Positions 1 through 55,999 of a stretch of DNA of 64,000 nt are shown one piece after another. How positions within the stretch are numbered: the first letter of the stretch is position 1; each line of letters starts with the position of its first letter. Origin of the DNA: Gonatopus flavifemur (Eukaryota > Arthropoda > Insecta > Hymenoptera > Dryinidae). The position numbers and the translations under genes were made by a program. The stretch covers positions 14,834,501 to 14,898,500 of the forward strand of contig JAFFJZ010000009.1 in NCBI GenBank assembly GCA_018340375.1. The letters run 5' to 3'. Under the pieces are notes generated by a model. That model saw only the letters and a program-made list of their open reading frames with translations. It did not search any database and was not told the DNA's origin.

Positions 1-316
1 GGGTACCCAATTTGAGGAGAATCCGATGATTTTTGAAATTTTCGTCCGCCATATTGGATTCGCCATTTTGATTTGGAACTCAAATAGCAGATTCGTAATC
101 AGCGACCCCAAAAACCCCTGATCACCAAGTTTGAAGAAAATCCGATGGTTTCTTTCAATTTTCGTCCGCCATATTGGATCCGCCTTTTTGAATTTTGAAA
201 TTCTGACAACGGATTCGTAATCAGTGACCCCATAAACTTCCCGAGTACGAAGTCGCAAGCGAATTTGAGAGCCCCTTATAATTTTGTCCAGCTTTTTGGC
301 ATTTGACCCCACTGTG
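1..316 (-). mobile_element. Transib left end, partial (runs off window start)
   Basis: Read on the minus strand this begins CACAGTGGGGTCAAATGCC at 316 and matches the left ends of the Transib copies at 20262 and 55934. It then runs into about three units of the same ~121-bp subterminal repeat (key block GGCGGATCCAATATGG). The transposon body lies outside the window. The terminus abuts LINE sequence at 317, so 317-321 (CAGAG) would be one copy of a 5-bp target duplication; the other copy is not visible. What is seen: the terminus, the repeat units and the sharp junction. What is known: Transib elements end in CACWRTG and duplicate 5 bp. Confidence 0.9.
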
Positions 317-1390
317 CAGAGGTTTTGTGGATTTACAAAAAGCATTCGATAATGTTGATTGGGAGAAAATGTTCACGATTTTGAAAAAGGTAGGAATTAA
401 TTTCAAGGATAGGAGAATAATATATGAATTATATAAGAATGGGACCGCAATAATAGAAATAGAGGGTCCAAAAGAAGAAGCACAAATTAAAAGAGGCGTG
501 AGACAAGGATGCTCACTATCACCATTGATTCTCAATTTGTACATAGAAGAAGCGATTAACGAATTGAAGGAGTGATCGCAATTGGAATCAAAAATTCAAG
601 GAGAAAATTTAAGCATGTTGAGATTTGTGGATGACATAGCCGAGTTAGAAAATAATCTCCACACTATGAAAACAATATTACTAGAAAACTGTTGTATGGA
701 TATAAATGAGGACATAACAAAATCCATGGTTTGTACAACAGCGAAGAGATCAGGAAGAACGAAAATCAAAATGGATGCAGAGACAATTCAGCAAGTCAAA
801 GGATTCAAATATCTAGAAAGCATAATTACAGAAACTGGTAAAAGCGAAAGAGATATAAGAGCAAGAATAGCACGAAGGAAACAGGCTTTCCACCAGAAGA
901 GACAGTTACTGTGTTTGAAGAATATTAGCTTAGCAGTAAGGAAGGAATTCTTGAAGAATTACGTTTGGAGCACAGCATTATATGATTGTGAAACTTGGAC
1001 AATTGGAAAAACGGAACAACGAAGACTTGAAGCTTTTGAAATGTGGTGTTATAGGAGGATGCTTAGAATAAAGTGGATAGAGAAAGTAAAAAATGAAGAA
1101 GTACTTGAGAAGGTAAATGAAAAGAGAAGTCTTTTGAGACATGTCGTGAACAGAAGAAGTAATCTGATAGGACACACTTTTTTTTTTAGGCATGATAGCT
1201 TATTGAAAACAATATTGGAGGGAAAAATGAATGATAAAACTCGAAGAGGTAGACCTAGATTAAGTTATATGAAACAAATTATACAAGATAAGGGTTGTCG
1301 TAGATATGTAGAAATAAAGCGTCTAGCGGATAATAGAATAGAATTTCATGAGACCAGTCATAAGACTGATTACTTCATGATGATGATGAT
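317..1390 (+). pseudogene. RTE-like LINE, 3' half of reverse transcriptase
   Basis: Non-LTR retrotransposon fragment. The frame opens inside the RT domain (FVDLQKAFDNVDW) and continues through RQGCSLSP and the catalytic region. The usual FADD box reads RFVDDIA. Further on come the YDCETWTI and RRGRPR blocks typical of RTE/CFDP2-like elements. A TGA at 573-575 interrupts the frame, which otherwise resumes in phase. The 3' end is the characteristic short tail with (GATGAT)n at about 1376-1390; the open frame beyond it (to 1571) is not LINE. The first codons continue exactly where the LINE fragment at 24877-25860 (minus) stops, so both halves probably come from one copy. Inactive: 5' half absent, stop codon, altered active site. 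Confidence 0.85.
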
Positions 1391-1641
1391 CAAAAATATA
1401 CACATCTTGCAGAAATTTGGAGTAATTGGAGCAAGAATCATTTCCAGCATTATTTCAATATTACTTGGAATGAATTTTGACATGATTCGCAGAACCAAAG
1501 ATATTCGGAAATGTGGAATAAAATTGTTCAGATTTCATAGAATTGCGAGAACATTTTCAAGTTTTCGATGACTTTGAGATGTACACGAATCATAGGAATT
1601 CGATTCAAAACACGAGAACTATATAACACCTGAACGTACAG
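1391..1641. other. No recognised feature
   Basis: AT-rich sequence between the LINE tail and the CCCTGG array. I see no gene or repeat boundary here. Confidence 0.5.
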
Positions 1642-4600
1642 CCCTGGTTAAACAATCCGATTGAATCCGATAAAAAAACATTTCATCGGAATGGATTGAG
1701 TTTCTGCATCGGAAATTTCCCATTGATACTAATAAAATAATTTTTAACTGGATTCAATCGGCATTTTCCCTGGTGAAAAAATCCGATTGAATCCGATAAA
1801 AAAACTTATCGGTATGAATTGATTCCTGCATCGCGATTTTCTTATTGAATTTTATTGGTTGTTAACCCAACCAACGAACGGTTTATATACATTATATACG
1901 CGCATTTTATATCTATTAAACAAACACATATATCATTTATTCAATCATTGCGTATGACAAATTATTGCTGAAATAAATTCAAACGATCATTTATGTGTTA
2001 TTAACATGTTGATCACCCATCCACCTTGTACCGCAGTTGTCGTTGCTGAACCTAGAAGATCGATCTGGAACACCCGCTCGCTCGATGCCGTGGTTCGCTT
2101 CCTATCAATGTGAATTAAATGACTGTCTTATGTCAAGGATGGGTGTCCTATAGTAATAAGATTCAATTGGTAATAGTCCATTTGACATATGAGGGATTGT
2201 ATCGGTCTTAATGAGAGCATGGGAGTTCATTAATAATAAGAATTCCAATTGATACCAAGAAAATATTTTCCAATTGGATTCAATCGGTATTTTATGATGG
2301 ATGAAAAATTCCGATTGATATCAATACAACATTTTTCAATTGGATTCAATCGCTATTTCATCAATTATGAAAATCCTAATTGATACGAGTCAAATATTTT
2401 CCAATGGGATCCAATAGGTATTTTATCAATAATAAGAATTCCGATTGATATCAATGAAATATTGTGTAATTGCATTCACTTGGTATTTTATGATCAATGA
2501 AAATTCCGATTGACGCAAATACAATAATTTTCAATGGATTGAATCGGTATGTTATTAATTATGAAGATTCTAATTGATACCAGTCAAATATTTTCCAATG
2601 GGATCCAATTGATATTTTATCAATAATAATTATTCCGATTGATATTAATGAAATATTGTGTAATTGCATTCACTTGGTATTTTATGACCAATGAAAATTC
2701 CGATTGATGCCAATACAATATTTTCCAATTGGATTCAATCGGTATGTTATTAGTCATGAAGATTCTAATTGATACCAGTCAAATATTTTTCAATGGCATC
2801 CAATAGGTATTTTATCAATAATAAAAATTCCAATTCGTACGGACACAATATTTTTCAATTTGATTCAATCGGCATTTTAATAATCATTACAATTATACTT
2901 GGTATCAGTGACATATTTTCCAATGGGATCCAATGGATCTTCCATCACTGATAAAAATTCCGATTGATACCAATGAAATATTTTCTAATTGGATTCTCTT
3001 GGTATCCTATGATTATAGTTTCCTATTCCAGAAACTTTCCCATTAGTTCCAATACATCGAGGTCACCAGGGATTCCGATAAAAACCAATGATCTGATGCA
3101 ATGGAAGAAATTTCAAAACTGAATCGGTTATTGCCGGTACATACCTATAGGACTTTAGGATCTGTAAACTTGCCTATTATTTCCAATAAATTTGAATGTT
3201 GGAATAATCCAATTAAAACCCATTGATCAATGAAATCGATACATCCTTAAATGCAGTCAGAAATCTCCCATTAGGAACCCATTCATCATTCAATTTCACA
3301 AATTTTCCCATTAGTTCCAATAGATTGAAATTGTGGAAACTTCCGATGAAAACCGTTTGCCTGATGGAATGGAGAAAATTTCAATCATCCAATCAGATAT
3401 CTCTTATACAGACCAATAGATTATGTAAAGTCTGATTAATTCCCATAAAATTCAGATTTTTTAATTGGTGAATCCCCGATTGAAACCTATAGAAAAGAGA
3501 TTCCGATAAACTCTTATTGATTTTGAATCGGGGATTGAACTGTTCCGATTGATCCTATGCAGTCCGATTAATTCTGAATCGGTTTCTATCGGATCTTATC
3601 GGATTTTTTAACCAGGGCTAATGCGGTGGAATAAAGTCTAAAATTGAATTGGACATTCCTCATTCAATGCTATTGAATATTCAATCCCGTAAATATTCCT
3701 TTTATTTCCCATAAATTGCACTGAAAAAAAATTTCATCGAAAATCAATTATATTTTGTTGTTAGGGTAACTGAATATCATAGTCAAGTCAACGAATATAC
3801 GGCCAGATTGACACCATGATGGTTGATTCAACTGCATGTAGTTGAGTCAACGGTGCATGTAGTTGAGGCAACAGTCAGATTCAGTTGGATATATCCAATC
3901 GTATTCCACTGTTGAATCAACTATATCACCGTTGTCTGTACCCACCTTTTTTCAGTGTGGGATGATCGAATAATCCAATTGAAACCTATTGACCAATAAA
4001 ATAAACAAACTCACATCGAATTGGATATTCTGGATAGAAACCCAGTAAGTCTTGAATTTTGTACAATTTTCCCATTGGTTCCGATAGACCGAAATCACCG
4101 AAAATTCTGATAAAAACCGATGATTTAATCCGCTGAAAGGAATTCTGAATTCGAATGGGATATTTCTAATTCAATCCTATTCAATTTTCAGATCCGTAAA
4201 TGGTGCTATTATTCCCCATGAATCCGGATAGTGGAATAATCCGATTAAAACCTACAGACCGATCAAATCTGTACGAACTCTAATCGAATTGAACATTCTC
4301 CGTAAAAACCGAATGAATTTCTCATTATGTAACATTTACGATCGGTTCCAATAGCTTTAGGTCATGGAAATTTCCGATAAAAACCATTTGCCTCATGAAA
4401 TGGAGAAATTTTCAAACTCTCAATCAGATATCTCTCATACAAACCGATTGATCACTGAAAGTCATATTAATTCCAATAAAACAAATATTCTTCTATCGAT
4501 AAATCCTCGATTCAATACTATATATACCACGTTCCAATTAATTCCTATTCATCTTGAATCGGTAGTTGAGCCTCTCCGATTGACCCTATTCATTCCGATT

Positions 4601-4648
4601 AATTTGGAATCGGTTTTTATCGGTTTCTATTGGACCTTTTAACCAGGG
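1642..4648. mobile_element. CCCTGG-ended array element A (with internal termini)
   Basis: Starts CCCTGGTTAAACAATCCGAT and ends ...CTTTTAACCAGGG at 4648. Further termini of the same type lie inside: a left-type CCCTGGTGAAAAAATCCGAT at 1767 and a right-type GGATTTTTTAACCAGGG ending at 3617, so two related units may be nested. The interior is a degenerate array of ATTCCGATTGATACCAAT and GGATTCAATCGGTATTTTAT motifs in both orientations, spaced mostly 60-180 bp. The array motif equals the inner half of the terminus. Non-coding, no transposase. Part of a family with the entries at 16216, 28319, 30375, 38937 and 54036. Target duplication unclear: possibly AG either side of 1642/4648. Confidence 0.7.
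3719..3957. mobile_element. MITE with CACTGAAAAAA ends inside array A
   Basis: 239-bp non-coding element with inverted ends CACTGAAAAAAA / TTTTTTCAGTG. Its interior holds repeats of GTTGAGTCAAC/GTAGTTGAGTCAACGG type. It is flanked by TG on both sides (..AAATTG | element | TGGGATG), consistent with a 2-bp target duplication. The ends resemble the MITEs at 50486 and 52595. Confidence 0.7.
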
Positions 4649-4849
4649 AGAACAAATGATTCTTTTCGTTCTTGTAAAGTGGCTTTCTTAACATCTGATG
4701 ATTCTCCAGGATTTTCTTTTTTTCTCTTTTGACCGGTACGTTCCGGTAGAATTAAGGAGTGCAGTAAATAAAAAATTACCGAAGTTTGTTGCGCTAAGAG
4801 TATATAAGAAAATCAACCATTGTTAACTACTGTTAAGAATCTGTGTATA

Positions 4850-5099
4850 CCAGGGGGGTGCAACTCACCTAATCACTTTCAGATGTTTCGCGAAACGTTT
4901 TGTCACCACAGTAAACTTCACTTGAAGTCCGTGAACGGCGCTGTCTGTAGCTAAGTCAAAACCACGTGATGTTTTTTTTTGTACACTACCCACGTGACTT
5001 TTTCTGATAGTACAATCAGCGTCTCCTGCGGACAGTTTGGGAAATATCGAATGGTGACGAAACGTTACGTATAGTTTTTATCGAGTTGCACCCCCCTGG
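4850..5099. mobile_element. MITE with CCAGGGGGGTGCAACTC inverted ends
   Basis: 250-bp palindromic element: CCAGGGGGGTGCAACTC at the left, its reverse complement at the right end. It is flanked on both sides by TGTATA, a likely 6-bp target duplication (the last two bases would also fit TA). Inner arms continue imperfectly (CGAAACGTT near both sides). Non-coding. Confidence 0.8.
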
Positions 5100-5404
5100 T
5101 GTATACTCACGATTTAGAATGTTAAACAGCAAATATATCAAAGTATCCACCTGTATCTAATTGCGGTAGCAAATGTACATATGCTTTATCGTTAGTCCTT
5201 TTGATATTCCCACAGTGCTGCAATCTGAATATTGAATGGGATTTGACAATATCCCAATTATCTCAGAACATTGTTCCTTTTTCAGGGTATAACTGATTAG
5301 AACCATATTCAATCTGTAATTCAACAGTATGAAAGAGTTTAATAAATTATATAACATTCGAAGTTTTGATTCTTATTACCAGGTGGATTCCTTCCTGTGA
5401 ATGG
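5100..5404. other. No recognised feature
   Basis: AT-rich sequence between two repeats. A short open frame on the minus strand (5157-5357) resembles nothing known and is not supported as a gene. Confidence 0.4.
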
Positions 5405-7160
5405 AAACCCAAAAATTGTTTGTAATGATGACAATCATATCATGCGCATGAATCGAAACGAAGATGTTTTCATCGATCAATGAAAGCAATCGATGCGTGT
5501 ATGCCGCTGATGCAACGAACAAACACGTACGGATTCATGTCTCTAATAATCACAACCCCTCACTCAGAGTATAGATTAGGAGAAACGAGATGAACTTTTT
5601 CATGGTGTGCGGTCGGAAGGTCCCAGTTTTTTGCCCCTGAACAAAATATCCTAGGAAAATGATTCAGAGCCAAAATATCCCAGTACACTTCGTTCCTTGG
5701 CATAAAGATTCCCGTCGGAATGATCCGTGGTATTTTTATCCCCGAGCCAGAATATTCCGCTGCAGATGAGTGTTTTATGTTGTTAGAAAAGTTCTGGAGT
5801 TTGGAACGAAATTCTGTGTGAGGTGTGATATTTTTATCTCGAATGTAATGCTGATTCCTAAGTTTAATGTTGGTGATGGAGTTTCACATGTTCTTACTGA
5901 TGTGTAATTGTCGGTTCAATGTCACTAGTCTGTTATTGTAGTGCGGAAGAGAGTTCTTAACGTGGAGAATAAAGTTTTGTACATTATGAATTATGTTTTT
6001 GAATTCAATATTTTATTTTGAAGTCTGTTTAATGAATTGATTGTGTAAAAGAGCTTCTTTTTTGTTTGCATCGTAATTAGAATTGTTGTGTATGAATGTT
6101 ATAAAATTTTGATCGATGCTGTGTACACATTTTATGATTGAAGTCGGTACCATCAAATCTCGTATGCCTGTAATTCATTGCTGTTCGCTTTGTGTGTGTA
6201 ATCTTTGTTTTGGATATTCTCTTCAATAGATTTGTTCAGTGTTTATAGGTGAGTTGAGATGTGTGTTTGTGTGAGTATGTGTTCGCTTCGATGTTTGTGT
6301 GTGATTGTGTGTTAGTGGATAAATTGTATTATCAAGGTTGAATTCAAGACGGTCTGTAGGATGTTTAATTCGGTGAGTGTTTGGTGCGTGTAATGTAATT
6401 GTAGAAGAAAGTCGTCTTAAGATGCCGTCGTAATTGTAGAAGAAGTCGTCTCATTGTGTTGGGGTATTTTTGTGCGGGATGTTTAGTGTTTGGTACATTC
6501 CCGCGGGGGATATTAGTGGTTGGGATATTTCCGCGGAGGATATTAGTGGTTGGGATATTTTTGCGGGGAGATTTTGATCTGATATTGAGTAACCGAGAGC
6601 CCTTTTTATACCTTGAAACGTGTCAAATTATATTCCTTCTTGTATCGAGTGAGCCAATGATTGCATTGGATTCACACTCACAAACGACGACAGAAAACGG
6701 ACACATTTCAAAATTCGAAAATTAAAGTTCGCATGAACTATACGGGAAGAATCTGGAAAAATAAACTACCATGGCCAGGAGTCGAATCTGGAACTACCCA
6801 TAGGTACTGGGGTGCGTTAACTAATTACGCCACCATGACTCCGACAGCCTGGTTTTTCAAGATTCTATTTTAGACTATGGGATGTTGAATTGAGAATATT
6901 ACGAGACCACAGTGCCATCTGTGATCTGTAATTGAAGGGAACCCTTTAGAAGTGACAGAGGGTGGGTCACTATTATCATACCACCCCGTTCCGTCTAATC
7001 TATACTCTGAATGAGGAGTTGTGATTATCAGAGATATGAACCCGTACGTGTTTATTCGTTGCATCAACGACATACACGCATCGATTGTTTTCATTGATCG
7101 ATGTGAATATCTTCGTTTCGATTCATGCGCACGATATGGTTGTTATCATTGGATTTGTCT
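5405..7160. mobile_element. Long inverted-repeat element, ~1.75 kb
   Basis: About 170 bp at 5420-5592 recurs as an imperfect inverted copy at 6990-7145 (for example GCATGAATCGAAACGAAGAT versus its complement near 7120). Inside, 5636-5757 and 6464-6575 are a second, inner inverted pair made of AAATATCCC motifs, and 6230-6330 is GT-rich. No transposase is visible, so this is either a non-autonomous long-TIR element or a foldback structure. Similar AAAATATCCC motifs recur near 45430-45530. Confidence 0.6.
6765..6850 (-). repeat. tRNA-derived SINE head or decayed tRNA
   Basis: On the minus strand, GGCGTAATTAGTTAACGC (A-box like) is followed about 40 bp later by AGATTCGACTCC (B-box like), the layout of a tRNA promoter. 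The acceptor stem does not pair convincingly, so this is a SINE head or tRNA relic rather than a functional tRNA. Confidence 0.4.
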
Positions 7161-7229
7161 CTCGTATCGAATTTATCATTGGTATGATAATATTGTTCGT
7201 AATAATTCGCTATGGGAGTTGTTTCTCTC

Positions 7230-7520
7230 ACAAGTATATTCCCAGATAACATTGCCTGCGCGCAAAACTTGAGACCGTTATGCACGCGGAAATTTGCGTG
7301 TGATTTGCGTGCAACTCACATACAACATCCATACTGCTGCTCGCAAATCGCGCGCAATAATCTGGTGCATATCTTGTGTAAATTCTCCACGAATTCACGC
7401 TCACATCGCTTGCAAAAGCCTGTGGATTGAGGTTGATTTTCTGAGAGTGAAATGATTGGATACTACGTGAAGATTTTGCGCGCAAGTTGCGTGCAATTTA
7501 GAGAAACTTGTTGAGTGAAA
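7230..7520. repeat. GCGCGCAA / TTGCGTGCAA repeat block
   Basis: Local GC-rich block in AT-rich surroundings, with GCGCGCAA, TTGCGTGCAA and GCTCGCAAATCGCGCGCAA in both orientations. It starts with TTCCCAGATAACATTGC, close to the CCCAGACARCA ends of the element at 48039-49211. Probably a diverged non-autonomous element; its right end is not recognisable. Confidence 0.4.
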
Positions 7521-9839
7521 AATATATGTATATACCGGAGTATATTCAAATATACTTCTAGAATGCAGTTGTTGAAATAATTGATAAAAGAACAAGCGAA
7601 AACAAAATAAAGTACGGTTGCAAATGATTCACATGCATATAGTGAGAAGAAAGATATGTTGAATCAAATAAGATTTGTTTATAGTGAATAAATGGTATAG
7701 TTGGATACAGCGGGAGAAATATTTATTAGTATTTATTCCATCACGTAGTTGATGAATACATCACATATTTCTCTGAGTCAACTTCATATCGATTATGATT
7801 TAATAATCAGAATTTGATAAGAAATCATATTCATTCGAATCAATGTCGATTAATTTGAGTCGCATGAATGATTTGGTTATGGTTAATAAATATCAATTTC
7901 TTAATATGAACACAATGTTTGTTTATAATAAATAAGTCTTATTTGCATGAAAACTGTTACAAATGTTCAACCAAATCTATCAATTTGTCATAAGAAAACC
8001 TTTTTCCCAGTGTAATGGAGATTTGAAATTGATTTTTTGTTGTAGAAGAGAATTTCTTATCGATTGTTCGAAAAAGAATTATTGTTTGAACAACTTATCG
8101 ACAAAAAAAGAGCGACAAAGGAATCACAATGTCTTACTATTTTCTTTCCTGATTTTTTTTATGAAAAGTAATGAATTATTCAAAAAATGAAGTTCGTCGG
8201 TGATCAGTCCTCTTAGAAGGATCACTAATGAATCATGAAAAAAGAATTCTTTCTGAATTCCCTTAGAACTCTGAAATTTGAAGAACATTAAAAACTCTTG
8301 GGACAAAATCCGATTTGAATTCTTCGAGAATTCGATTTATAGGACATTCACGAAGTTTAAATGAGTCCAAAAAGAGTCCTTTTCTAGAATCGATTAGTAA
8401 TTCTTTTATGTACTCTGATGAATTGATCCAAATTCACAAATATTATAGGGGAGAGTCTTACGGCACCGACACTTTCTGATTCTCGCTGAATAATAGAAGG
8501 GAATAATGTAAGGATGTGTACTCCAAAAGGTTTTGGTAAAATCAAACATAGTTCGAGTATGACGTTTTCCAATTCTTATTGTAACAGTTACACGACGTTG
8601 AAATTGTTTATCGGTCTTCACATTCGTTTCATGACAAGATGTCACAAGTTCTCTCGTCTTGAAAAAAGAAGAACTCAATAAATTTGTACAAAATTGTTAC
8701 AAAATTAAGATACTTCAACAAAATTTTGAAAACTACATTTCTTCGTTTTTTCAACAGAAAATTGAAAATAATAGGTGATATATTAACTGAAATGCTAAAA
8801 AAAACAACAATGATGAAATGTAAAAAGTGACTTGTGACGTTTCAGCTTTTTTAAAATCTGTGAAATAACAAAACTTGTTATTTACATTTCATCATGTCAT
8901 AGACAATATGTTAAATTAAAGGGCTTATTTTTACTGACTGGTTTTTCTCTAGAAATTTGCCTCTTTTCATCTTCGAAATGATGTTGAAAAATGTGTTGAA
9001 TTCAAAAATGTGAAACGCAGTGTTCTTCAAATATCTGAATTAGTCGAGAAATTAAAAATCTTCGTACCATAAAGACCTCGTCAAGAGAGCACAGAGTCCG
9101 TAAAGAATTTTGTCATAACTTCATTTGAATTCTCAAGTTTTCAAACCCATCTTGAAATTTTTTATTGCAAACTATTGAAGGAATGAATAGTTGTTCATGA
9201 GTGCTTCGAGTCGATAATTTACTATTGTCTGTATAGTTTTGAATCGGTGATTCACCATTGATCTATGGTTTTCTATAGAATTTAAGGGAAACGTAAATGA
9301 TTTTATCTTGAGATTTCTATAGGAAAAGTATTAATTATTTGGAAAAAAATATCACGGTATCCTTTTGAATGACTGGTATTCCTTATAAAGTAATTTTACG
9401 ATAAAACCAGAATCATTTCTCTCAAATCCTATAGATTACGATAAAAACCGATTGAGTTATATCGTAAATTCATGATACAGCATCGTAAATTTCCGTTTCG
9501 GAAATCGCATTGGAACCAATAGGAAGAATGTTATCGTTTCCTATGGGAAATTTCTGTCAGGAGAGGTAACAGTGCAAGAGTAAATACTCATCATACGAAG
9601 AGAATTGGAACTCGAAAATATAATAATTCTTATGAAATTAATATAAAATTAATAAAAAATAATATAAAAATTCTGGTAAAATGAATATTTCGATTCCCAT
9701 TAGTCAGAGAGTGGGAATTCTTCATACATGAAGATGTAAAATTACATATAGCATCGTACCCTGAACATGTGCTATAAATGCGCACAATCGGGACGATTTC
9801 AAATATATGTAAGCCTTTTTGGGCCGCCTGATCAGCGTT
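7521..9839. other. Intergenic, degenerate repeats only
   Basis: No coding signal. 8190-8340 has AGAATTCTTTCTGAATTC-type palindromic motifs like those in the element at 48039-49211. 9220-9560 holds scattered AAAACCGATTGA / CCTATAGATTACG motifs resembling array A at 1642-4648, probably an old relative. The rest is AT-rich with nothing recognised. Confidence 0.4.
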
Positions 9840-9935
9840 GTCGGTTTAGCTGCGATCGTTAAGGCATAGGTTAGGTAGGTTTAGGAATGAGATGGGTAGG
9901 TTTCTGACAGGGTTCGATACCCGTTGGAGGAAGGA
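9840..9935 (+). repeat. tRNA-derived SINE head
   Basis: TTTAGCTGCGATCGTTAAGGC (A-box like) followed by TAGGTTAGGTAGGTTTAGG and then GGGTTCGATACCC (B-box). The spacer carries TAGG repeats, as in the heads at 40855 and 49212. A SINE head or tRNA pseudogene, not a folding tRNA. Confidence 0.5.
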
Positions 9936-10045
9936 TTTGATATTTAACTCCTGAATGTGTGTTAAGTTCAGTTTGAAAATTATTTTTTTCAGATTTCGAA
10001 CAAATTTTTTTTTTGTATTTCCAAGTATGAATTGTTGAGAAGAAT

Positions 10046-10274
10046 GCCTTAAGGGCATTCATCAGAGGCGAAGTTACTAGATTTCTCCCCCCAGTTTTCT
10101 CAACGATTAATGAATATAATCGATTTTAATGAGCAGGTGCATCTTCTTAGCATATCAAAGAAAGTGCAGCTACTCTTTATTTTTCATTTTATTTGTTTGT
10201 TTCTGAGAAAACTGGGGGGGGGGGCGATTTTGGAATCTAGTAACTTTTTGGGAAGGCAGTGAATGCCGTTAATG
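10046..10274. mobile_element. MITE, ~230 bp
   Basis: Palindromic element. Left arm GGGCATTCAT..GAAGTTACTAGATTTC..CCCCCCAGTTTTCTCA is mirrored at 10198-10274 by TGAGAAAACTGGGGGG..GAATCTAGTAACTT..GTGAATGCC. Loop about 90 bp, non-coding. Confidence 0.75.
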
Positions 10275-12090
10275 GGTTAATATAGTTTTCATATAATCAT
10301 ACCAGTCCCATAATTTTGCGCTTGCTAAAACCCCCATCCCCTCAATAAGTTAGAAACTGTTGAAATAAGTTGATATTTCTTCGGATGGAAAGAGCTTTCC
10401 GGTACCCTCAGCAAACGTTCCCAACCTCTCCGATGGTATTCTGCCAACAGAAGACATCCACGTTGTGAATTGCGGTATTTATCAAAAGTTAAAGGGCCTC
10501 GTACATCACCTGAATAGTGAAAAATTTTGCACGATGTTTTTAACAAAACCGCACAATAATTTCACAATTTCTCATGAGTAATGCGTAATCACAGTCGGAG
10601 ATTGCGCATTGATGATAAAAACTGTTCGACTTAGTTTGTCATGTTGTTCAAAACTCAGAACAAATTTTTTGGTATTGAGTGCCCTTAAACAGATATGATG
10701 GTATTGTTTTTCCAAATATGAAAAGAGCACCTTACATAAGTTTTTCTAATTCATCATATCCATTTTGAGGAAGACTGGTCAATGCCGTATCGATTTCGTT
10801 TTGAATGGTTATGCGAACCAATAACTTAGGCGCAGTTTCATTCAAGAAATTGGTAATAAAATGGTAGGATCTTGTAATTATTTTGCCGTCGCTATATTTC
10901 CTAAGTATCTTTTCCACTCCGTAAGTAATACAATTCAAACACATCAGTTTGATATACAGTTCATAGTGAAGGGTATCATTTGAAAAATAATAAAAACCAT
11001 AAAACCCACGTTTTCTTCAACTTCTCTCCGCATACCTTTCGCACTCGTACTTTGTTTGAATCCAGTCTGATCACCTGTTTTGTTCTCATTGAATATCTGT
11101 TACATGATGAATAATAATGATTGAAAAAAACGAGCGTGTAAACAGCTTGTTTTAGAATCTTGCAATATCGCAAAAGTGAGAAATTACTATTCAAATGATA
11201 ATGCTCCCTTCCTTAGAACTTGGAAGATTAACCTTCTGAATTATGTAATATTTAAACTACATCAATATTAGGATCAATGTTTGTTGCAGCTGATTGAATT
11301 GATGAGGGTAACAATAAATTTGTGTTTTTTCCGTCATACTATCCAACGGTTCAATATGAAATACTTGATTCAATGAATCGAAGGAGGCTTTCTGAGAAGT
11401 CAACACATCATCCAACTCATTGAGTACTGGGAGCACGAGATCTAGAGATTTCTGAATGAAAAAAAATACAGGAATATGTGAACGGCGATTATCAAATGAA
11501 ATTTATGAACTTTTTTCTCACGATAGGAGAATTTTTCTGATAGTACTGAATCCATAATTCCATGCTACGAAGAAAGATTTAATTATTTCGCAAAAAAACA
11601 ATTCTCACATTTGATGAGATTTTCGGCTGCAGATCGGTGTCGAGATTTTCCATATTCGACTGCTATCCATCTGCGATGACAGTACACTCAAATTCAGAAC
11701 AAGATCAACGTTGAAAATACGAGATGATTAATCAGGCAATTATTCATTTGAAATCGTCAGAGTTACTAGTTGTTACTAAAAGCTACAATGGAATTCTCAA
11801 CATACGAACGAGTTAACATCAAAATTCTTCAAGATGATTTTGATCATTCACATGTAACTCTTTCTTAATAACGTAGAGATAAATATTTTTAAAATTTCGG
11901 GCAATATAAATTTGGTGTATTGAATTATTTTCATGATTTCAGTTTATAATTTTTGAATTGAATCAGATTGAAAAAGTATTAGTATTAAACTCAATATATT
12001 AAATTGTAATACCAAATCAACTTGATAACTTGAACTGAAACTTAAGAAAACTCCAGTAAAAAGAAGCATAATTGAGGGTCGAAATGCAAG
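10275..12090. other. Unrecognised AT-rich sequence
   Basis: About 1.8 kb without a supported gene. Short open frames (for example 10732-10944 minus) have no recognisable domain. 11950-12090 leads into the outer inverted arm. Confidence 0.4.
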
Positions 12091-12865
12091 AACCGACGAT
12101 ACGCTCGAGAAGTGATAGAAGTATTGTCCAAGCCATGACGTCACACGTCGAAATCAAAAGTTGAAATTTCGGAAATTGTAAAATACTGGGTGATAGGTAT
12201 TGAAAAATCAATCCGAGTTTCCGTTTACGATTTTTTTGTATGGTCTATAGTTTTCGAGAAAAAAAATGAAAACTACCTATTATTTCACACCAAAAATCGA
12301 TGTTTTTGAACATTAACCTCATTCTCACCCGGCCATTTTTCAATATATCGAAATAAATCTCATGATCTCTGATTTGTGAGGCTTTTTCGCAGATGACACT
12401 GTTGAAAAGATGTGTAAAAATGAAGTAAAAGGTACAAAAAACTTCCAGCGACAAAGTTGTTCATTAGTCTATGGACAAGCTTTATGGAAAATTTCAGATC
12501 GATTGGTCTGTTGATTTGTAGGATACAGTGATTTATTACGAACGCACAACGGAAGGTTTTCATGATTTTGCGACGTTTACCGTCTGAATATTGAAATACG
12601 TAAGAGAGACTGTATTCGTTCGATTTCTCAAGGTAGGTTTATGTTTTTTGAGTCAGACAATTCGAATATCAAACTATTTTTGCAAAATCCGTTGTCCATT
12701 TTTTTTTTATAAACAATTGCATTGTTCATAACCTTTGTATGATCAAACTATTGATTTTGGACAGAAATTGTCTTGAACGAACAAGTTTCTCGTCTTGTGA
12801 GGGAGAAGTTTTTCAAATAAACAATTCATTCGATAAGAACGACTTCATCCACAAAATATTGGTCT
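12091..12865. repeat. Outer inverted arm, left copy
   Basis: About 775 bp that recurs inverted at 19390-20261, alignable nearly end to end with small indels (for example GTATTGTCCAAGCC, GACTGTATTCGTTCGATTTC and TTCTCGTCTTGTGAGG are found on the opposite strand there). Non-coding. It also contains the uninterrupted version (near 12085-12105) of the sequence into which the Transib copy at 20262 is inserted. Probably two copies of an unclassified repeat family in opposite orientation. Confidence 0.75.
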
Positions 12866-13105
12866 TATCATCATCACCATCATCACCATCATCACCATCA
12901 TCATCATCACCATCATCACCATCATCACCATCATCACCATCATCACCATCATCACCATCATCATCATCACCATCATCACCATCACCATGAAGTAATCAGT
13001 CTTATGACTGTTTTGATGAAATCCTCCAACCCTGTCTGTTATACGTTAACCGCTTAATTTCTGCATATCTACGACGAAATATCTACGATATTGGTCTCAA
13101 AAACA
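12866..13105 (-). mobile_element. LINE 3' tail with (CATCAC)n microsatellite
   Basis: 12866-12988 is a CATCAC/CATCAT microsatellite. 12990-13105 is the minus-strand 3' end of the same RTE-like LINE as at 317-1390 (GTCATAAGACTGATTACTTC shared). Only the last ~115 bp and the expanded tail are present, i.e. a severely 5'-truncated insertion. The same fragment recurs at 18324-18475. The Ser/Pro-rich open frame over it is a microsatellite artefact. Confidence 0.75.
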
Positions 13106-14087
13106 AATTATGGGAACCCGAACTATGGGAAAAAAAGTCTCGGTCAAAATGGCTGGGGTTTGGATATGTTTTAGTTTTGAATGTGCTGAATGAAAAATGT
13201 ATTAGGCAAAATCATTTTCTACGCGTAGTTTAGCCGCCCCAGGCCGCAAAAGGACAGATTTTGAGTTTCAATGAGAATATGACTATTGAAGTATAATACT
13301 GTGCACGGATAAACAATACACTCAAAAGAAATTATAAGGATCAGGATAAGTATTTTGGAAAGAATCATTAGAACATAGTCATCGATAATTGCTAGGGAAT
13401 GACATGCGAAAGAGAGAGCATTTCAAGAATATGAATTTGAATTTTGGAACAAAGGAAATTATTTTCATAATTTTATGTACAGGGGTACTCAGAGAACTGT
13501 CCTGAGTATTTTCATGTATTTGTTGAGGCTAGATAGTTGAAGGGTTAGAACATTCAAAATTCACCCATGGTACATCAACGAGTATATAAGGAGCGAGTTG
13601 AGCGCTTCAAGCCATTCCATGTTCTCTCGCGACACAGTGCAGAGCTCAGTCGAGGTCATGGTCTCAAGTGAAAGTTATTCAAAGTGTTGAATTTAACAAA
13701 TAACAGATGTGATTTTATAAAGAAATATGAATATTTTGAAAATATTGTGCTTTATTGTAAAATTAGAGTATCTCACCTATGTTTCCTGTACTCAACTAAG
13801 TTAAAAAATTAGTTTGAGCAAAAAATTTGGTTGGATAAGTGTTGGAATTATTTTATTCTTCAAAACGTGAAAGGGGTAGGTTTGCTTGTTTACCAGAAAA
13901 CAAGCTGGCGACCGAGCGTGCATCTTCGGTGGATTTTGTTTTTTGTGGCATTTTCGGGTGGAAGTTCTTTGCAAATTTATCATTCACATCCGAGCCTGCA
14001 AGTACCATGCAAAAGTATTCGTGGATTTTTTTTCATAGCATGGTACGGCTACAATAAATATGGATGTATGTATGTATGTATGAATTG
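13106..14087. other. Unrecognised; possible decayed LTR or promoter near 13583
   Basis: No gene. TATATAA at 13583-13589 lies upstream of CAGT/TCAGT initiator-like sites (13634, 13646), and A+T-rich sequence with TATAAAG follows. This could be a solo LTR or chance; no matching second LTR is visible in the window. Confidence 0.25.
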
Positions 14088-14384
14088 ATTAATGCGAGCA
14101 CACACACACATACATACATATAAATATACATATACATATGTACATACATAAACACATACGAATAACATGGAAATACGCATGTTTCGGAATACTGGATCGT
14201 TTGTACGCGTTTTTGCCGTGATCTGGAATCGAACATGGATTCATCAGATATTCTTCATAAACCGATACAGAATGATCCTGAGTAAGGCTCTTCATTGATG
14301 CTGAATGAACATGGGATTTGTACGCAGGAGATTTTGGAAATCACTGGAACAGGCAGGGATTAAAGAAGTGACTTCAGGGAGATA

Positions 14385-15350
14385 ATGGATATTGCATCGG
14401 TGGTGCTTTTTGGCCAGCACCGGGGATCGCATATTTATCTATTACATGTTTTTCTGGAATGCCTGAAGGATGGTTTTGTCGAGGTTCCATCGTTTTCCCA
14501 AATGACGCATGAGACTTAGACACAACAAACGATTAAAAATGATGATGATTCCTCAAAAATCGACGATTGTATGTAATCATACGTATGTACGCTCTCACTA
14601 GCACTGGGAATTGCGTACATATCAATTGGATACTTCTCCAGGATGCCTACAAAATAGTCTTGTCAAGATTCCATCGTTCCCCCGCAATACATATGGGACT
14701 TGGACAGGAAAACCGAATCAAAATAATGGCAATTCCTCAAGAATGAAAGACTTGAGGTATGAAAGTGTTTGTGCGTTTTCCCCGGCACCGAAAGCTGCAT
14801 ATGTATCTATTGCATATCTTTTGGGATGCCTACAGGATAGTTCTGTGGAGGTTCCATCGGTTGTCCGAATCACATATGGAACTTAGACATGGAAAACGAT
14901 TGAAAATGATGGAAATTCTTGGAAAATCTCCGCGAATGTATCTATCGGATATTCCTTCGAGATGCCTCCGAAATAGTTCCCTCAAGTTTTAATCGCTCGT
15001 GCGAATTATACGACCGACTCACATGAGAAAAACGGAGAAAAGAAGAGGAAAATTCATGTTTCCAGATAGGTGGACGGTTGTGCGTCTTCGCCGGCACAGG
15101 GAATCGCAAATGTATCCATCGGATATCTTCGAGATAACTCCAGAATAGTTTTGTGTTTCATCGTTTTCTTCGCATGACATATGTGACTTGAACACGAAAA
15201 CCGAATCAAAATAATGGTAATTCCTCGGGAATGAAAGACTCGAGGTATAGAAGCATTTGTGCGTTTTCCCCGGCACCGGAAGTCGCATATATATCTATTG
15301 CGTGTTCTCTTGGAATCCCTACAGATTGACAGGTTCTCGCGTGTCCAAAG
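14385..15350. repeat. Degenerate ~170-bp tandem repeats
   Basis: Five to six units of about 150-180 bp. Each has the order CCCCGGCACCG..GCATATGTATCTATTGCATA..GGATGCCT..AGGATAGTT..GAGGTTCCATCG..CACATATGGGACTTAGACA..AAAACCGA..AATGATGG. The first unit lies in the left TIR arm and its copy is in the right arm, so these are subterminal repeats of the long-TIR element. Small open frames over them are repeat artefacts. Confidence 0.7.
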
Positions 15351-15630
15351 GACATATAGCTGTATCCCATATAGCTGTATCCCATATAGCTGTTGCTTTT
15401 TGTTTTTCATAGAGAGGGAAATGCTTCATGCACCGTCAGGGAGCTGGATTGCTCCCCGGTGTGTGGGACTCCTGCACTTGACGAGCAATCTTGCCTGCCG
15501 CAGTGTACCCACTACAACCCGCCTCTCTACTTCCTGGGTCCAGCCCGAAACTGTTTATGAATTGAGGAAGTCCACGAGATCCATATTTTCCACGTTCTTT
15601 TCGTTTTGAGAACAAAGGGAGGGTTTCAAA

Positions 15631-16182
15631 TCACCCTGTTCCATGTGCAACGCCTCCATCAGTTCTAAGTTGTCGATTCCTACCAGCTGATTCCAAAATC
15701 ATGTTCAATCGTAGTGTATCAGGATGGTTCACGTTCGGCTGATGACGTGCATAACCAAGGAACCACAAGGTGCTTGCCACGTGAGCACACGTACCTAGTG
15801 TCCTAGCTCCAGTTTGACATGGACAATAATATCCATCAATAAATTCTCCTATGTTATTTCCTATTTGATCCTCCTCGTCATTACTGTACGCAATGAATAT
15901 CTGATGCTTTGTAGAATTCCGGAACCGTAAATGAATTCTAACCCTGATGAAACTAGGTTCATCGATGTGCTGATCCAGTTGGAATTGTCCTTCGTTATCT
16001 CGTTGTAGCTTGTCCTGTATATAAGATGGACCTAAATTCACTTGATATACACCAATTGTTACATCCTTCAGGTGTTCCAGCGTGAGACGTGGGACCTTCA
16101 GAACATGATGTTGAGTGAGTTTCACCCACTGTCCATCTCTGTGTCCAGAAGCAATTCGGTAAAACTCACCAAGGGTAAACAT
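15631..16182 (-). pseudogene. SWIM-type zinc-finger protein fragment (transposon-borne)
   Basis: 183-residue open frame, C-terminal part of a larger protein. It contains a clear SWIM finger, C-P-C-x9-C-x-H (Cys120, Cys122, Cys132, His134), followed by STLWFLGYARHQ. SWIM fingers bind DNA or protein and occur in several transposase-associated proteins. The preceding ~110 residues (LTLEHLKDVTIGVYQVNLGPSY) look like a conserved region of insect and cnidarian transposon proteins, but I cannot name the family. The frame ends near the inner edge of the right TIR arm at 16187, so the upstream catalytic part is missing. It could be the DNA-binding remnant of the autonomous parent of the long-TIR element. 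Confidence 0.55.
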
Positions 16183-16580
16183 ACGGGGAATCGTTTGTTG
16201 TGTCTAAGTCTCATACCCCTAGTAAAAAAACGAACATATATCACTCATACATAATCCATACATGAAACATATGGAATTCACATATGTTCCATATATGAAA
16301 ACGCATGGAATCATATACAATCCATATTTAATCCATATGTAATCGATATATGATCATATCTGACTCATATATAATCCATATAAAATCCATATACGAAAAA
16401 TATTTCATATGTGACAGAATGTTTTCACATGTATGGAAAAATCTTGCATTGAAGGGTTATACATGGATTCTGTATAGGCCATATCTGACCATATACGGAT
16501 TCAATATGGATTGCGTATGGATTATATATGGTCATATATGGCCCTATATGGTTCCTATATGATTTATGTATGTTCTTATA

Positions 16581-17874
16581 CGAGGGTGGATTGATAAGTT
16601 TCCGGCCTGACCAAGAGATGGCGCCACTAGGCCTACCTTGAGGTGGCGTTCTATAGTACCATCCTTAGATAGCTTGTAGCTATAGTTTCAGTCCGATCGC
16701 CATGTTAGTTTAGTTTTGAGAGCACGCTGACCAAGACGTCTCTGTGTTTTTCGTAAAAATGGAAAAGCTGGAAAATTGTGCTGTCATCAAATACTTTTAT
16801 TTGAAGGGGTTAACGCCGAAGGAAATGAAAGAAGAGATGGACTCAACACTGGGGACATCCTCCCCATCATATTCAACCGTTAAGCAGTGGGTTTCCGAGT
16901 TTAAAAAGGGTCATGTGAGCACCTCTGATGAGCCTCGCTCAGGACGCCCTATTGAGGTCACAACTCCAGATATGATCGGAAAAATCCATCAAATAGTGCT
17001 GAAAGATCGCAGATTAAAAGTTCGTGAGATAGCTGAGACCTGTAAGATGTCATATGAACGTGTACAAAATATTTTGCACCAACATTTGTATATGGAAAAG
17101 CTCTGTGCAAGATGGGTGCCGCGTTTGCTAACAGTCGACCAAAAATTGATTCGAAAGAACATTTCTACCGCCAATTTGGCGTTGTATAAGCGTAATCCAA
17201 GCGTATTTTTGCGTCGATTCGTAACCGTTGACGAAACTTGGGTCCACCACTACACTCCTGAAACCAAAGAACAGTCTAAACAGTGGATTGGACCAGGGGA
17301 ACCAACTCCAAAGAAGGCAAAAACAATTTTTTCGGCGAACAAGGTTATGGCTACTGTTTTTTGGGATGCAAGAGGTATTATATACATTGATTACCTTGAA
17401 AAGGGTAAAACTATCACTGGTCAATACTACGCAGACTTATTGCAACGTTTGAGCCACGAAGTGAAAATTAAACGACCTCATCTGGCGAAGAAAAAAATCT
17501 TGTTTCATCACGATAACGCACCAGCATACACGTCAATCGTTGCGATGGCTAAAATCAACGATCTGAAGTTTGAATTAATGCCGCACCCTCCCTACTCTCC
17601 AGACCTAGCCCCGAGTGACTATTATCTGTTTTCTAACCTCAAAAAATGGCTTGGCGGTAAGAGATTTGCGGACAATGAAGAAGTAATCGAAGCTGTAAAT
17701 GGGTATTTTGAGGAGCTTGACGAATCAGTCTATAGAGATGGCATTACTAGACTAGAACACCGCTATGAGAAATGTATCAGCCTTGGAGGAGATTATGTTG
17801 AGAAATAAGAAAAAAAAAATTCTTAAAAACGTTGTTTTTCTTGGGCAGGCCGGAAACTTATCAATCCACCCTCG
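16581..17874 (+). mobile_element. Complete mariner element, 1294 bp
   Basis: Inverted ends CGAGGGTGGATTGATAAGTT (left) and the exact complement (right) extend about 28 bp, up to GGCCTG. A TA duplication flanks it (16579-16580 and 17875-17876). The size is typical of mariner. It contains one uninterrupted transposase gene and is inserted inside the CCCTAG element. Nothing disabling is visible, so it may be autonomous or recently active. Confidence 0.95.
16759..17808 (+). CDS. Mariner transposase, apparently intact
   Basis: 349 residues from the ATG at 16759; the open frame extends five codons upstream but with no ATG. Mariner transposases cut and paste their element at TA sites in the nucleus. 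The N-terminal half has two helix-turn-helix regions (residues ~10-110: STVKQWVSEFKKGH, then KVREIAETCKMSYERVQNIL) joined by a GRP-type linker (SGRP). The WVPRLL linker motif is at residues 119-124. The catalytic triad is Asp158 (VTVDETW), Asp252 (FHHDNAP) and Asp287 (SPDLAPSDYYLF), giving the D,D34D spacing that defines mariner. No stop or frameshift is present and the length is normal. Neighbouring mobile genes are all damaged, so this one stands out. Subfamily not assigned. Confidence 0.95.
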   Translation: MEKLENCAVIKYFYLKGLTPKEMKEEMDSTLGTSSPSYSTVKQWVSEFKKGHVSTSDEPRSGRPIEVTTPDMIGKIHQIVLKDRRLKVREIAETCKMSYERVQNILHQHLYMEKLCARWVPRLLTVDQKLIRKNISTANLALYKRNPSVFLRRFVTVDETWVHHYTPETKEQSKQWIGPGEPTPKKAKTIFSANKVMATVFWDARGIIYIDYLEKGKTITGQYYADLLQRLSHEVKIKRPHLAKKKILFHHDNAPAYTSIVAMAKINDLKFELMPHPPYSPDLAPSDYYLFSNLKKWLGGKRFADNEEVIEAVNGYFEELDESVYRDGITRLEHRYEKCISLGGDYVEK

Positions 17875-18322
17875 TATGTGCCATTTTTACTAGGTACGTT
17901 ATTTGGAAAAACGATGAAAACCTTGACAAAACTATCCTTCAGGCATTCCAGAAGAACATGCAATAGATACATATGCGATCCCCGGTGCTGGCCAAAAAGC
18001 ACCACCGATGCAATATCCATTATCTCCCTGAAGTCACTTCTTTAATCCCTGCCTGTTCCAGTGATTTCCAAAATCTCCTGCGTACAAATCCTATGTTCAT
18101 TCAGCATCAATGAAGAGCCTTACTCAGGATCATTCTGTATCGGTTTATGAAGAATATCTGATGAATCCATGTTCGATTCCAGATCACGGCAAAAACGCGT
18201 ACAAACGATCCAGTATTCCGAAACATGCGTATTTCCATGTTATTCGTGTGTGTTTATGTATGTACATATGTATATGTATATTTATATGCGCGCGCGCGCG
18301 TGTGTGTGTGTGTGTGTGTGTG

Positions 18323-18475
18323 TCATCATCATCATCATCATCATCATGAAGTAATCAGTCTTATGACTGGTTTGATGAAATCCTCCAATCCTGTCTATTA
18401 AACGCCAACCACTTAATTTCTGCATATCTACGACGACATATCTACGATATTGGTCTCAAAAACAAATCATTCGAA
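18323..18475 (-). mobile_element. LINE 3' tail with TG and CAT microsatellites
   Basis: (GC)n(TG)n at about 18289-18323, then (CAT)n, then the same ~115-bp minus-strand LINE 3' end as at 12990-13105. It shows that 5'-truncated copies of the window-start LINE family landed twice, both beside inverted arms. Confidence 0.7.
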
Positions 18476-19386
18476 CACAAAAAGTTTCTTATTCTGTGAA
18501 ATATAAATGTTGTACATATCACTTTTCAATATCTCAATTCTTTGTTTGAATATAATTATTATGTTTACATGAAGATAAAATAATTTCAATGATTCGGGTT
18601 TTCAACATAGATCAAGGCTTTCGGGTGGAGGAATTCAAATATTTAACGATTCTGATGGGATCAAAGAATTGGATTATCAATAGCGTGATATCGTAGAGTG
18701 CGAGCAATCATCATTCTAGTGAAAAGAAATCATAGTTATCTGCTTGTGGGACAGACGAGAAAGCACTAGAAAATACATTGATCACGTGCGATTAAGAACA
18801 TCGAAGGTTCATATGAGATTCAAAATTTTACGTCAGATACTTTTCTCATTTTGATACCGTTTTGCAAAATTTATGGACACAACAAGAATATCTCAACTAT
18901 TGCTTCCCTAAAAAGAATAATGAAAGAAGGAGGGAAAAGCATTCAAGTTTGTCAACATGAGTTGCAAAATGATATCGAAACGAGAAAAGTATTTCACGTA
19001 AAGATTTGAATCTCTCATGAACCTTCGATATTCTTAACCGCACGTGGTCAATGTATTTTCCAGTACTTTTTCGTCTGTCCCACAAGCAGATAACCATGAT
19101 TACTTTCCACTAGAATAATAATTGCTCGCACTATACAATGTGACGTGATTGATAATCCAATTCTTTGATCTCATTAGAATCGTTCAATATTTCAATTTCT
19201 CCACCCAAAAGCCTTCATCTATGTTGGAAAACCGAATCATAGAAATTATTTCATCTCCATTTGAATATAATAATTATATTCAAACAAAGAATTGAGATAT
19301 TGAAAACTGATAAGTACAAAATTCATCTTTCACAGAATAAGAAACTTCTTGTGTTGGAATAATTTGTTTTTGAGATCAATATTTTG
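18448..19386. repeat. Large imperfect palindrome, ~430-bp arms
   Basis: 18448-18880 is mirrored by 18950-19386 around a short centre near 18915. Shared blocks include AAGTTTCTTATTCTGTGAAA, CAATATCTCAATTCTTTG and GATAATCCAATTCTTTGATC on opposite strands. Arms look about 85-90% identical by eye. Non-coding. It could form a hairpin or cruciform. It may be a foldback element inserted between the LINE tail and the outer arm. Confidence 0.75.
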
Positions 19387-19389
19387 TAG

Positions 19390-20261
19390 ATGAAGTCGTT
19401 CCTGATATATTAATTATTTATTTGGAAATTGGATGAGGAACCTTGCAAAATAGTCTGATTTTGGATTCAAAACTTCTTCCTCACAAGACGAGAAACTTGT
19501 TTGTTCAGGGCAATTTTTCTTCAAAGTCAATAGTTTGATCATAAACACGTTATGGACAATGAAATTGTTTATAAAACAAAATGGACAACGAATTTTGCAA
19601 AAATAGTTGAATGTTCGAATTCTCTGACTCAAAAAACATAAACCTACCTTGAGAAATCGAACGAATACAGTCTCTCTTACGTATTTCAATATTCAGACGG
19701 TAAACGTCGCAAAATCATGAAAACCTTCCGTTGCGCGTCCATAAATAAATCACTGTATTCTACAAATTAACAGACCAATCAATCTGAAATTTCCCATAAA
19801 GTTTGTCCATAGACTAACGAACAACTTTGTTGCTGGAAGTTTTTTGTACCTCATATCTCCTCCACCACTTTTTCAGTTCAAAGCATGAAAAACACGGTTT
19901 TCACTTCGGATTAAGAACTTATTCATTTGTTATCAATTTTTACACATTTTTCCCAACATTCTCGTCTTTGAGGGAGTCTTAAGAATCGGAATCTGCAAGA
20001 TTTATTATGATTCATCGAAAAATGACGGAGTTAGAGCGAGTTTAACTTTGCAAAACAATGATTTTTAATGTCAAAAAATAGGTAGTTTTTATTCTTTTTC
20101 TCGGAGACTATCGATTACAGGAAAAAATCGTGAAGGGAGACTTGGGTTGATTTTCCAAGCCCTATCACCTAGTATTTTCAGATTTCCGAAATTTTGACTT
20201 TTTTTTACACTTGACGAGACGGCTTGGACAATACTTATACCGGTTTTTGAGCGTATCGTCG
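19390..20261. repeat. Outer inverted arm, right copy
   Basis: Reverse-complement partner of 12091-12865. It ends at 20261 where Transib begins (..GCGTATCGTCG | CACAGTG). In the left copy the same sequence runs on uninterrupted (..CGTATCGTCGGTTCTTGC on the minus strand near 12100), which gives an empty site and suggests CGTCG as the target. Confidence 0.75.
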
Positions 20262-21250
20262 CACAGTGGGGCCAAATGCCAAAAAGCTGGACAAAATTAT
20301 AAGGGGCTCTCAAATTCGCTTGCGACTGCGTACTCGGGGAGTTTATGGGGTCACTGATTACGAATCCATTGTCAGAATTTCAAAATTCAAAATGGCGGAT
20401 CCAATATGGCAGACGAAAATTGAAAGAAACCATCGGATATCCTTCAAACTTGGTGATCAGGGGTTTTTGGGGTCGCTGATTACGAATCTGCTGTTTGAGT
20501 TCCAAATTAAAATGGCGAATCCAATATGGCGGACGAAAATTTCAAAAATCATCGGATTCTCCTCAAATTGGGTACCCAACGGTTTTTGGGGTCGCTGATT
20601 ACGGATCCGTTGTTCTCATTTCGAAATTCAAAATGGCGGATCCAATATGGTGGACGAAAATTGGAAGAAATCATCGGATTTTTTTCAAATTTGGTGATCA
20701 GGGGTTTTCGGGGTCGCTGATTACGAATCCGCTGTCTGAGTTCCCAAATTCAGAATGGCGAATCCAATATGGCGAAAGAAAATTGAAAAAATTATCGGAT
20801 TCTTCTCAAATTGGGTACCCAGGGATTTTTGGGGTCGCTGATTACAAATCCGTTGTCTGCATTTCGAAATTCAAAATAGCGGATCCAATATGGTGGAATA
20901 AAATCGAGGAGATCATCGGATGTTCTTCAAACTCGGCATCTAGGAGTTTTTGGGGTCACTGATTACGAATCCGTTGTCAAAATTTTGAAATTCAGAATGG
21001 CGGATCCAATATGGTGGACAAAAATTAAGAAAGTCATCGCATTTTCTTCAAACTCGGTACTCAGGGGTTTCTGTGGTCGCTGATTACGAATCCACGGTCT
21101 GAAATTCAAAATTCAAAATAACGGACCCAATATAGCGGACGAAAATTGTAAAAATCATCGGATTCCCTTCAAACTCGGTACCCAGGGGTTTTCGGGATCG
21201 CTGATCACGAATCCGTTGTCAGAATTCCGAAATTCAGGATGGCGGATGCC
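20262..21250. repeat. Transib left subterminal repeat array (copy 1)
   Basis: About eight units with ~121-bp period, each carrying GGGGTCGCTGATTACGAATCC, an AATTCAAAATGGCG / GATCCAATATGG block, GACGAAAATT and CATCGGATT..TTCAAA. The first unit follows the terminus by about 75 bp. Likely binding or structural repeats of the transposon. Open frames across it are an effect of the repeat lacking stops. Confidence 0.85.
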
Positions 21251-21493
21251 AAAAATCGAAACTTCATTCATAACTTGATATTAAACAAGAACTAAACGGC
21301 CCATTTTGTTGTTCCTATTATGATCATCATTATTATTATTTCCAACATTGAATCATTATTAATATAATTATCGAATGATATTAACACACCAAATGTGTTA
21401 AATCGAAAGATATATACATTCACAATATATACAATAATATAAAAAACTGAAATCGTAATGGTTTTTACTTTTGCCACACTTTTTTTACTCAGA

Positions 21494-31928: not shown

Positions 31929-31932
31929 GAGT

Positions 31933-34916: not shown

Positions 34917-34940
34917 ACAACGACCGAATTAGAACTATTA

Positions 34941-55971: not shown

Positions 55972-55999
55972 TAAGGGGCTCTCAAATTCGCTTGCGACT

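What the first reader, a model, noticed from the sequence alone, without database searches (positions are those of the whole stretch)
317..20261. Segment 317-20261 appears inverted between two Transib copies
LINE sequence starts at 317 inside the RT domain (GFVDLQKAFDNVDW) right at a Transib left terminus. Another LINE fragment of the same family on the minus strand stops at 24877 (..ENRLEISKSVYI) right at the other side of Transib copy 1. The two halves meet with no visible gap or overlap in the RT sequence. Re-inverting 317-20261 gives one colinear LINE-Transib-LINE on the minus strand. The two Transib ends bordering the segment (316 and 20262) are in opposite orientation, as inversion by recombination between copies requires.
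Basis: partly seen in the sequence, partly recalled or inferred. Interest (0 to 1): 0.9.

Follow-up and report, generated by a model that had tools for sequence, protein, structure and literature searches.

The report
Inverted segment between copied jumping genes
A 19-kb piece of what is probably an insect chromosome reads backwards relative to its surroundings, lying between two mirror-image copies of a jumping gene that most likely arose when a DNA break was mended by copying a neighbouring element; it is a well-preserved example of a known kind of rearrangement.

Summary
The two LINE halves are one element split by a Transib: at DNA level they overlap by 5 bp (CAGAG/CATAG, a Transib-sized target duplication) and share a private base; 7 of 7 other LINE copies examined are unbroken there. 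Sequence left of the window shows that the window-start Transib is only a 335-bp stub. The real left copy (B) is complete, ends 923 bp left of the window, has CGACG on both sides and the predicted continuation of the 12.1-kb arm. Arm plus B's first 4,615 bp recur in mirror image at 19358-24876 (99.1% over 5.5 kb). So the order is P-D-inverted X-inverted D-Q, with X = -18..19357, not a clean exchange between two Transib copies. Favoured account: the Transib in the LINE broke, repair copied 5.5 kb from B's locus and ended by end joining, and the new inverted repeats flipped X. A one-step staggered-break or template-switch event, a plain exchange followed by later repair, and an assembly flip stay open. 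Known kind, modest interest.

The parts
1..316 (-). Window part of the 335-bp left-end stub of the Transib that split the LINE (T_L); it continues to -18 left of the window, where it is joined to arm sequence
317..321 (+). CAGAG, the T_L target duplication on the LINE 3' side
317..1395 (+). 3' half of the RTE-like LINE, ending in short ATG repeats (end read by eye)
1..19357 (.). Window part of the inverted segment X (-18..19357)
12070..12866 (+). First arm of a palindromic repeat; outer end near 12070
19358..20261 (-). Second arm of the palindromic repeat; right-hand copy of the arm part of D; ends in CGTCG
20262..24876 (+). Transib copy 1 (positions 1-4615, right end missing); right-hand copy of the Transib part of D
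24877..25803 (-). 5' part of the LINE reverse-transcriptase region; its edge is within one base of T_L's former right terminus
55934..61353 (+). Transib copy 2, complete, target duplication AGTCG on both sides; used as reference

Best explanation
A 19.4-kb segment X is inverted between two mirror-image copies of a 5.5-kb block D (904 bp of a palindromic repeat arm plus the first 4,615 bp of a Transib). Shown: one Transib (B) sits in the arm with CGACG on both sides; a second (T_L) sat in an RTE-like LINE with CAGAG/CATA(G); T_L is now a 335-bp stub; D is duplicated in inverted orientation; two joins are new (arm -19 | T_L 335, no shared base; Transib 4615 | LINE, one shared base).
For: LINE halves contiguous in 7 of 7 copies with a 5-bp overlap and a private base on both sides. 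B complete with equal 5-bp duplications and the arm continuation behind it. Inverted duplication of 5.5 kb at 99.1%: 6/904 differences in arm, 40/4615 in Transib. 39 of 44 non-self matches to 19258-19457 cross 19357|19358 while the left copy stops exactly there, so the left join is the new one. Copy 1 positions 1-501: B is the nearest of 40 copies scored, with one mismatch. The D break at 4615 lies at the start of the right subterminal inverted repeat (about 4616), a plausible place for copying to stop. No LINE sequence was found in the 20 kb to the left.
Against: Two steps are needed where a one-step model does with one. Beyond position about 1000 copy 1 is not simply B's copy: of 40 B-copy 1 differences 18 have both alleles in other copies, and a tree of 2540-4615 groups copy 1 with L033 and B with copy 2, so later conversion or another source for that part must be assumed. 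The flip rests on the assembly crossing 5.5-kb repeats. Nothing shows a transposase cut directly.
Confidence: 0.45

Rival explanations
1. One event: staggered breaks about 5.5 kb apart at B and the arm (on two strands or two sister chromatids), or a replication template switch, plus a break in T_L, with the segment joined inverted; D is left at both ends and the rest of T_L is lost.
For: The order P-D-inverted X-inverted D-Q is what such models predict; both joins share 0-1 base. Inverted duplications at inversion ends, and a repair-based reading of them, are described in PMC7584159 (passages, section 25).
Against: A 5.5-kb stagger is long; the model does not by itself explain why the LINE edge lies within one base of T_L's end.
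Confidence: 0.25
2. One reading: B and T_L recombined and inverted X, and a later break in the left hybrid was repaired by copying arm plus Transib end from the right copy.
For: Copy 1 has unlike flanks (CGTCG and CATA(G)), as an exchanged element would; its right part groups with L033 rather than B.
Against: B has equal duplications on both sides. The T_L stub is not close to L033 (11/335, in a range of 5-13/335 over 12 sequences compared). Alleles shared only by copy 1 and B among the copies examined also occur far inside (1701, 2668-2669, 3601).
Confidence: 0.13
3. Assembly flip: the copied block in the LINE is real, but X was placed backwards across the 5.5-kb inverted repeats.
For: Both new joins would be the same with X either way round; only the order across repeats of 99.1% identity differs. 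No reads or second assembly were available, and a search for a second haplotype did not complete.
Against: The contig is 21.8 Mb long, without N in the window or the fetched 20 kb, and 0.8% divergence can be resolved by accurate long reads (general knowledge).
Confidence: 0.12

Closest known systems
Galileo-generated inversion 2z3 of Drosophila buzzatii (PMC2775673; passages seen)
   Same: Inversion between transposon copies in opposite orientation, with target duplications as evidence
   Different: There both copies have exchanged duplications and both are chimeric; here the left copy has equal duplications, flanking arm sequence is duplicated, and one side is an end join
[quoted passage not shown] passages, section 25)
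   Same: A block duplicated in inverted orientation at the two ends; joins with little or no homology
   Different: Here the block is mostly a transposon and 5.5 kb long, and one edge coincides with a transposon end
Long-tract gene conversion ended by end joining in mammalian cells (PMC5104497; abstract and outline seen)
   Same: Copying of kilobases from a donor, then end joining with little homology
   Different: There an engineered reporter copying from a sister chromatid; here a natural, inverted, non-allelic neighbour is inferred

Membership tests
Transib transposon | Transposase related to a solved Transib-type transposase | tested here: met
   58437-59669 against PDB 6pqn (deposited as putative DNA-mediated transposase; that this is HzTransib is recalled): E 2e-48, residues 177-407. 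Pfam gave 0 families for the same ORF.
Transib transposon | Ends beginning CACAGTG (RSS-heptamer-like) | tested here: met
   CACAGTG at both ends of copy 2 and the left ends of copy 1, B and the stub
Transib transposon | 5-bp target duplication (length stated in PMC7204232, passage) | tested here: met
   2 of 2 complete copies: AGTCG/AGTCG (copy 2), CGACG/CGACG (B); T_L CAGAG/CATA(G) with one mismatch
RTE-type LINE | Endonuclease-reverse transcriptase protein of this type | tested here: inconclusive
   114 protein relatives, many with RT and endonuclease domains; in the window RVT_1 scores 23.7 bits, under the 29.6 cut-off, and 582-1571 matches no Pfam family. The name RTE is recalled; no clade tree was made.
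Transposon-mediated ectopic recombination (Galileo criteria, PMC2775673) | Copies in opposite orientation | tested here: met
Transposon-mediated ectopic recombination (Galileo criteria, PMC2775673) | Target duplications exchanged between the two copies | tested here: not met
   Copy 1 has unlike flanks, but B has CGACG on both sides
Transposon-mediated ectopic recombination (Galileo criteria, PMC2775673) | Both copies chimeric | tested here: inconclusive
   Mixed allele sharing in copy 1 and B
Inversion with inverted duplication at its ends | The same block at both ends in inverted orientation | tested here: met
Inversion with inverted duplication at its ends | A single copy of the block in the uninverted state | not testable with these tools
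   No relative of this genome is held (statement)

The most novel reading that the evidence does not exclude
A RAG1-like (Transib) transposase cut its element at one terminus inside the LINE, and faulty repair from a neighbouring copy both built the inverted repeats and led to the inversion: a natural, base-resolved trace of a RAG-like break turning into a chromosome rearrangement, with the copying halted at the element's own subterminal inverted repeat.
Probability: 0.25. Interest if true: 0.55.

Novelty: new member of a known kind. Interest (0 to 1): 0.35.

Why it matters
It shows that an inversion flanked by transposon copies need not be a simple exchange between them: with the flanks in hand, target duplications and a non-homologous join point to a repair that copied a neighbouring element. 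The long inverted repeats left behind could let the segment flip again, so its orientation may vary among individuals. Seven papers hold the terms Transib, chromosomal inversion and breakpoint; I read passages of two, which do not describe a Transib-caused inversion, and saw the other five as listings only, so I make no claim that none is in print.

Tried and rejected
Reciprocal exchange between the window-start copy and copy 1: rejected, since the window-start copy is a 335-bp stub and arm sequence is duplicated. Two LINE copies truncated independently: rejected for the 5-bp overlap, the private base on both sides and contiguity in 7 of 7 copies examined of 39 non-self matches listed; if one breakpoint fell anywhere in 3 kb an exact 5-bp overlap would be 1 in 3,000 (arithmetic only). 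T_L inserted through a cryptic right end at position 4615: the bases beside it give no matching 5-bp repeat (read). Hybrid-element insertion (described in PMC2775673): would not leave arm joined to a left end with CGTCG/CGACG on both sides; reasoned, not computed. Copy 1 as a plain copy of B with private differences only: not met, 18 of 40 differences are also found in other copies. A difference in divergence between arm plus Transib 1-543 (7/1447) and the rest (39/4072) was not significant, Fisher p 0.09. A target duplication linking the LINE 3' end with the endonuclease piece at 41.6 kb: only matches of 10 bp or less. A target duplication of the palindromic arm family: none recognised by eye in the flanks. 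Viral contigs gave nothing. Rfam: 0 matches. Rows dropped: L054 and L059 for short coverage (28 rows left); L066 and L070 align badly at the left.

Full report
Coordinates. Window position p is C392:14834500+p of genome G000 (636 Mb, 402 contigs). Negative positions lie left of the window; position 0 exists. C392:14814501-14834500 was fetched as L010 and L009.

The LINE. The 3' half of an RTE-like LINE lies at 317-1395 (+) and the 5' part of its reverse-transcriptase region at 24877-25803 (-). In 11 of 11 relatives the 5' match ends at 24877; the 3' match follows at the next residue in 6, one residue later in 1, and overlaps by 2-4 residues in 4. Of 114 relatives found, 66 have both halves near the join; 51 of 66 are exactly contiguous and 15 are off by -8 to +4 residues. 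Seven other genomic copies were examined, of 39 non-self matches listed: BLAST ends are contiguous in 6 of 7, and read at the site all 7 are unbroken and give GTGTATAT|AGGTTTTG. This copy gives GTGTACATA(G) on the right and CAGAGGTTTTG on the left: an overlap of five bases with one mismatch, and a C that none of the seven has, on both sides. The G of CATAG may belong to the Transib, so four of five bases are certain on the right. Five bases is the length given for Transib target duplications (PMC7204232, passage). The other copies are 85-88% like the 5' part and 83-89% like the 3' part, leaving out one 78-base match. Conclusion: one LINE, split by one Transib (T_L) whose left end faced the 3' half.

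What flanks the segment. A complete Transib, B, lies on the minus strand at -6583..-923 with CGACG on both sides; beyond its right end stands ATTGAGGGCGCGGATGTAAGAAC, like the outer end of the arm family and like 12070-12093. So the predicted flank exists, but behind B and not behind the window-start fragment. After B come 904 bp of arm (-922..-19), a join, the 335-bp stub of T_L (-18..316) and the LINE. Neither LINE half matches anywhere in the 20 kb to the left.

The inverted duplication. -5539..-19 and 24876..19358 are inverted copies: 99.1% over 5,522 columns, 46 substitutions and 2 gaps; 6/904 in arm, 40/4615 in Transib. The arm belongs to a repeat family (1,403 first-look candidates, 40 scored). 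Of 44 non-self matches to 19258-19457, 39 cross 19357|19358 (one of them the other half of this palindrome); the left copy stops exactly at 19358, and four others are short pieces. The right-hand arm is therefore in its usual context and the join at -19|-18 is new.

Order. The older order was P - B - arm - X - LINE 3' - T_L - LINE 5' (Q). Today it is P - D - inverted X - inverted D - Q, with D = arm plus Transib 1-4615; T_L beyond 335 is gone. The left join shares no base (AAACAAATTATT|AGCGACC), the right join one. The right join lies within one base of where T_L's right end would have been. The D break at 4615 lies at the start of the right subterminal inverted repeat, about 4616 in copy 2.

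Source of copy 1. For positions 1-501, B is the nearest of 40 copies scored (one mismatch), the next being 98%. Further in the picture is mixed. Of 40 B-copy 1 substitutions, 15 alleles are private to B, 7 to copy 1, and at 18 both alleles occur in other copies; at those 18 sites B equals copy 2 at 14 and copy 1 equals L033 at 12 (9 to 28 copies per site). For 2540-4615 a tree of 28 rows groups B with copy 2 (0.92) and copy 1 with L033 (0.95). Yet alleles seen only in copy 1 and B among the copies examined stand at 107, 1701, 2668-2669 and 3601. Several conflicts are clustered where B looks like copy 2 (1058-1067, 2779-3336), which suggests later conversion of B, but another source for copy 1's right part is not excluded. 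In 600-base windows B is the nearest copy to copy 1 at 1-1000, 1601-2200 and 2401-3000 and not elsewhere (3 to 29 copies per window). The T_L stub is 11/335 from L033, in a range of 5-13/335 over 12 sequences. Divergence in arm plus Transib 1-543 against the rest does not differ significantly (Fisher p 0.09).

Mechanism. I favour repair of a broken T_L from the neighbour B, copying out into the flanking arm and ending by end joining, then a flip of X by recombination between the new inverted repeats. The joins, duplications and order are shown; the break, the copying and the flip are inferred. One-step staggered-break or template-switch models (PMC7584159, passages and section 25) fit the order equally well with fewer steps. 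A pure exchange between B and T_L does not explain the arm duplication. An assembly flip across the 5.5-kb repeats cannot be excluded without reads.

Known or new. [quoted passage not shown] Of the three Galileo criteria, orientation is met, exchanged duplications at both copies is not met, and chimerism is inconclusive. I rate this a new member of a known kind.

Noticed in passing
40969-41649 (-): Endonuclease part of an RTE-like LINE on the same strand as the 5' half, 15 kb away; it covers about residues 1-222 of full-length relatives, with roughly 100 residues missing before the piece at 25803. It may be the same LINE cut by later insertions.
   Followed up: partly
31460-37473 (+): LTR-retrotransposon-like element: direct repeats 31460-31928 and 36981-37473 at 96% around RT, RNase H and integrase frames.
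   Followed up: no
14099-18306: Element with 388-bp inverted ends (96%) that holds a mariner-type transposase frame at 16744-17808 with its own short inverted ends.
   Followed up: no
12070-20261: Palindromic repeat: the arms continue into the hairpin 18433-19399, so about 5.6 kb (12868-18430) looks inserted in one arm.
   Followed up: partly
55934-61353: Transib copy 2 appears to be inserted in a mariner-like transposase frame (recognised by eye from recall, not scanned), with AGTCG on both sides.
   Followed up: no
20262-21250 and 60549-60780: The Transib carries 121-bp tandem repeats near its left end and inverted copies near its right end; B is 5661 bp against 5420 in copy 2 and repeats part of that right-end region.
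   Followed up: partly
38961-40126 and 2221-3022: Tandem arrays with periods of about 10 and 65 bp.
   Followed up: no
L013, L014, L015, L019 (contigs C385 and C196): The palindromic repeat sits between nearly the same flanks on two contigs, so C196 and C385 may hold haplotypes or a duplication of one locus.
   Followed up: no
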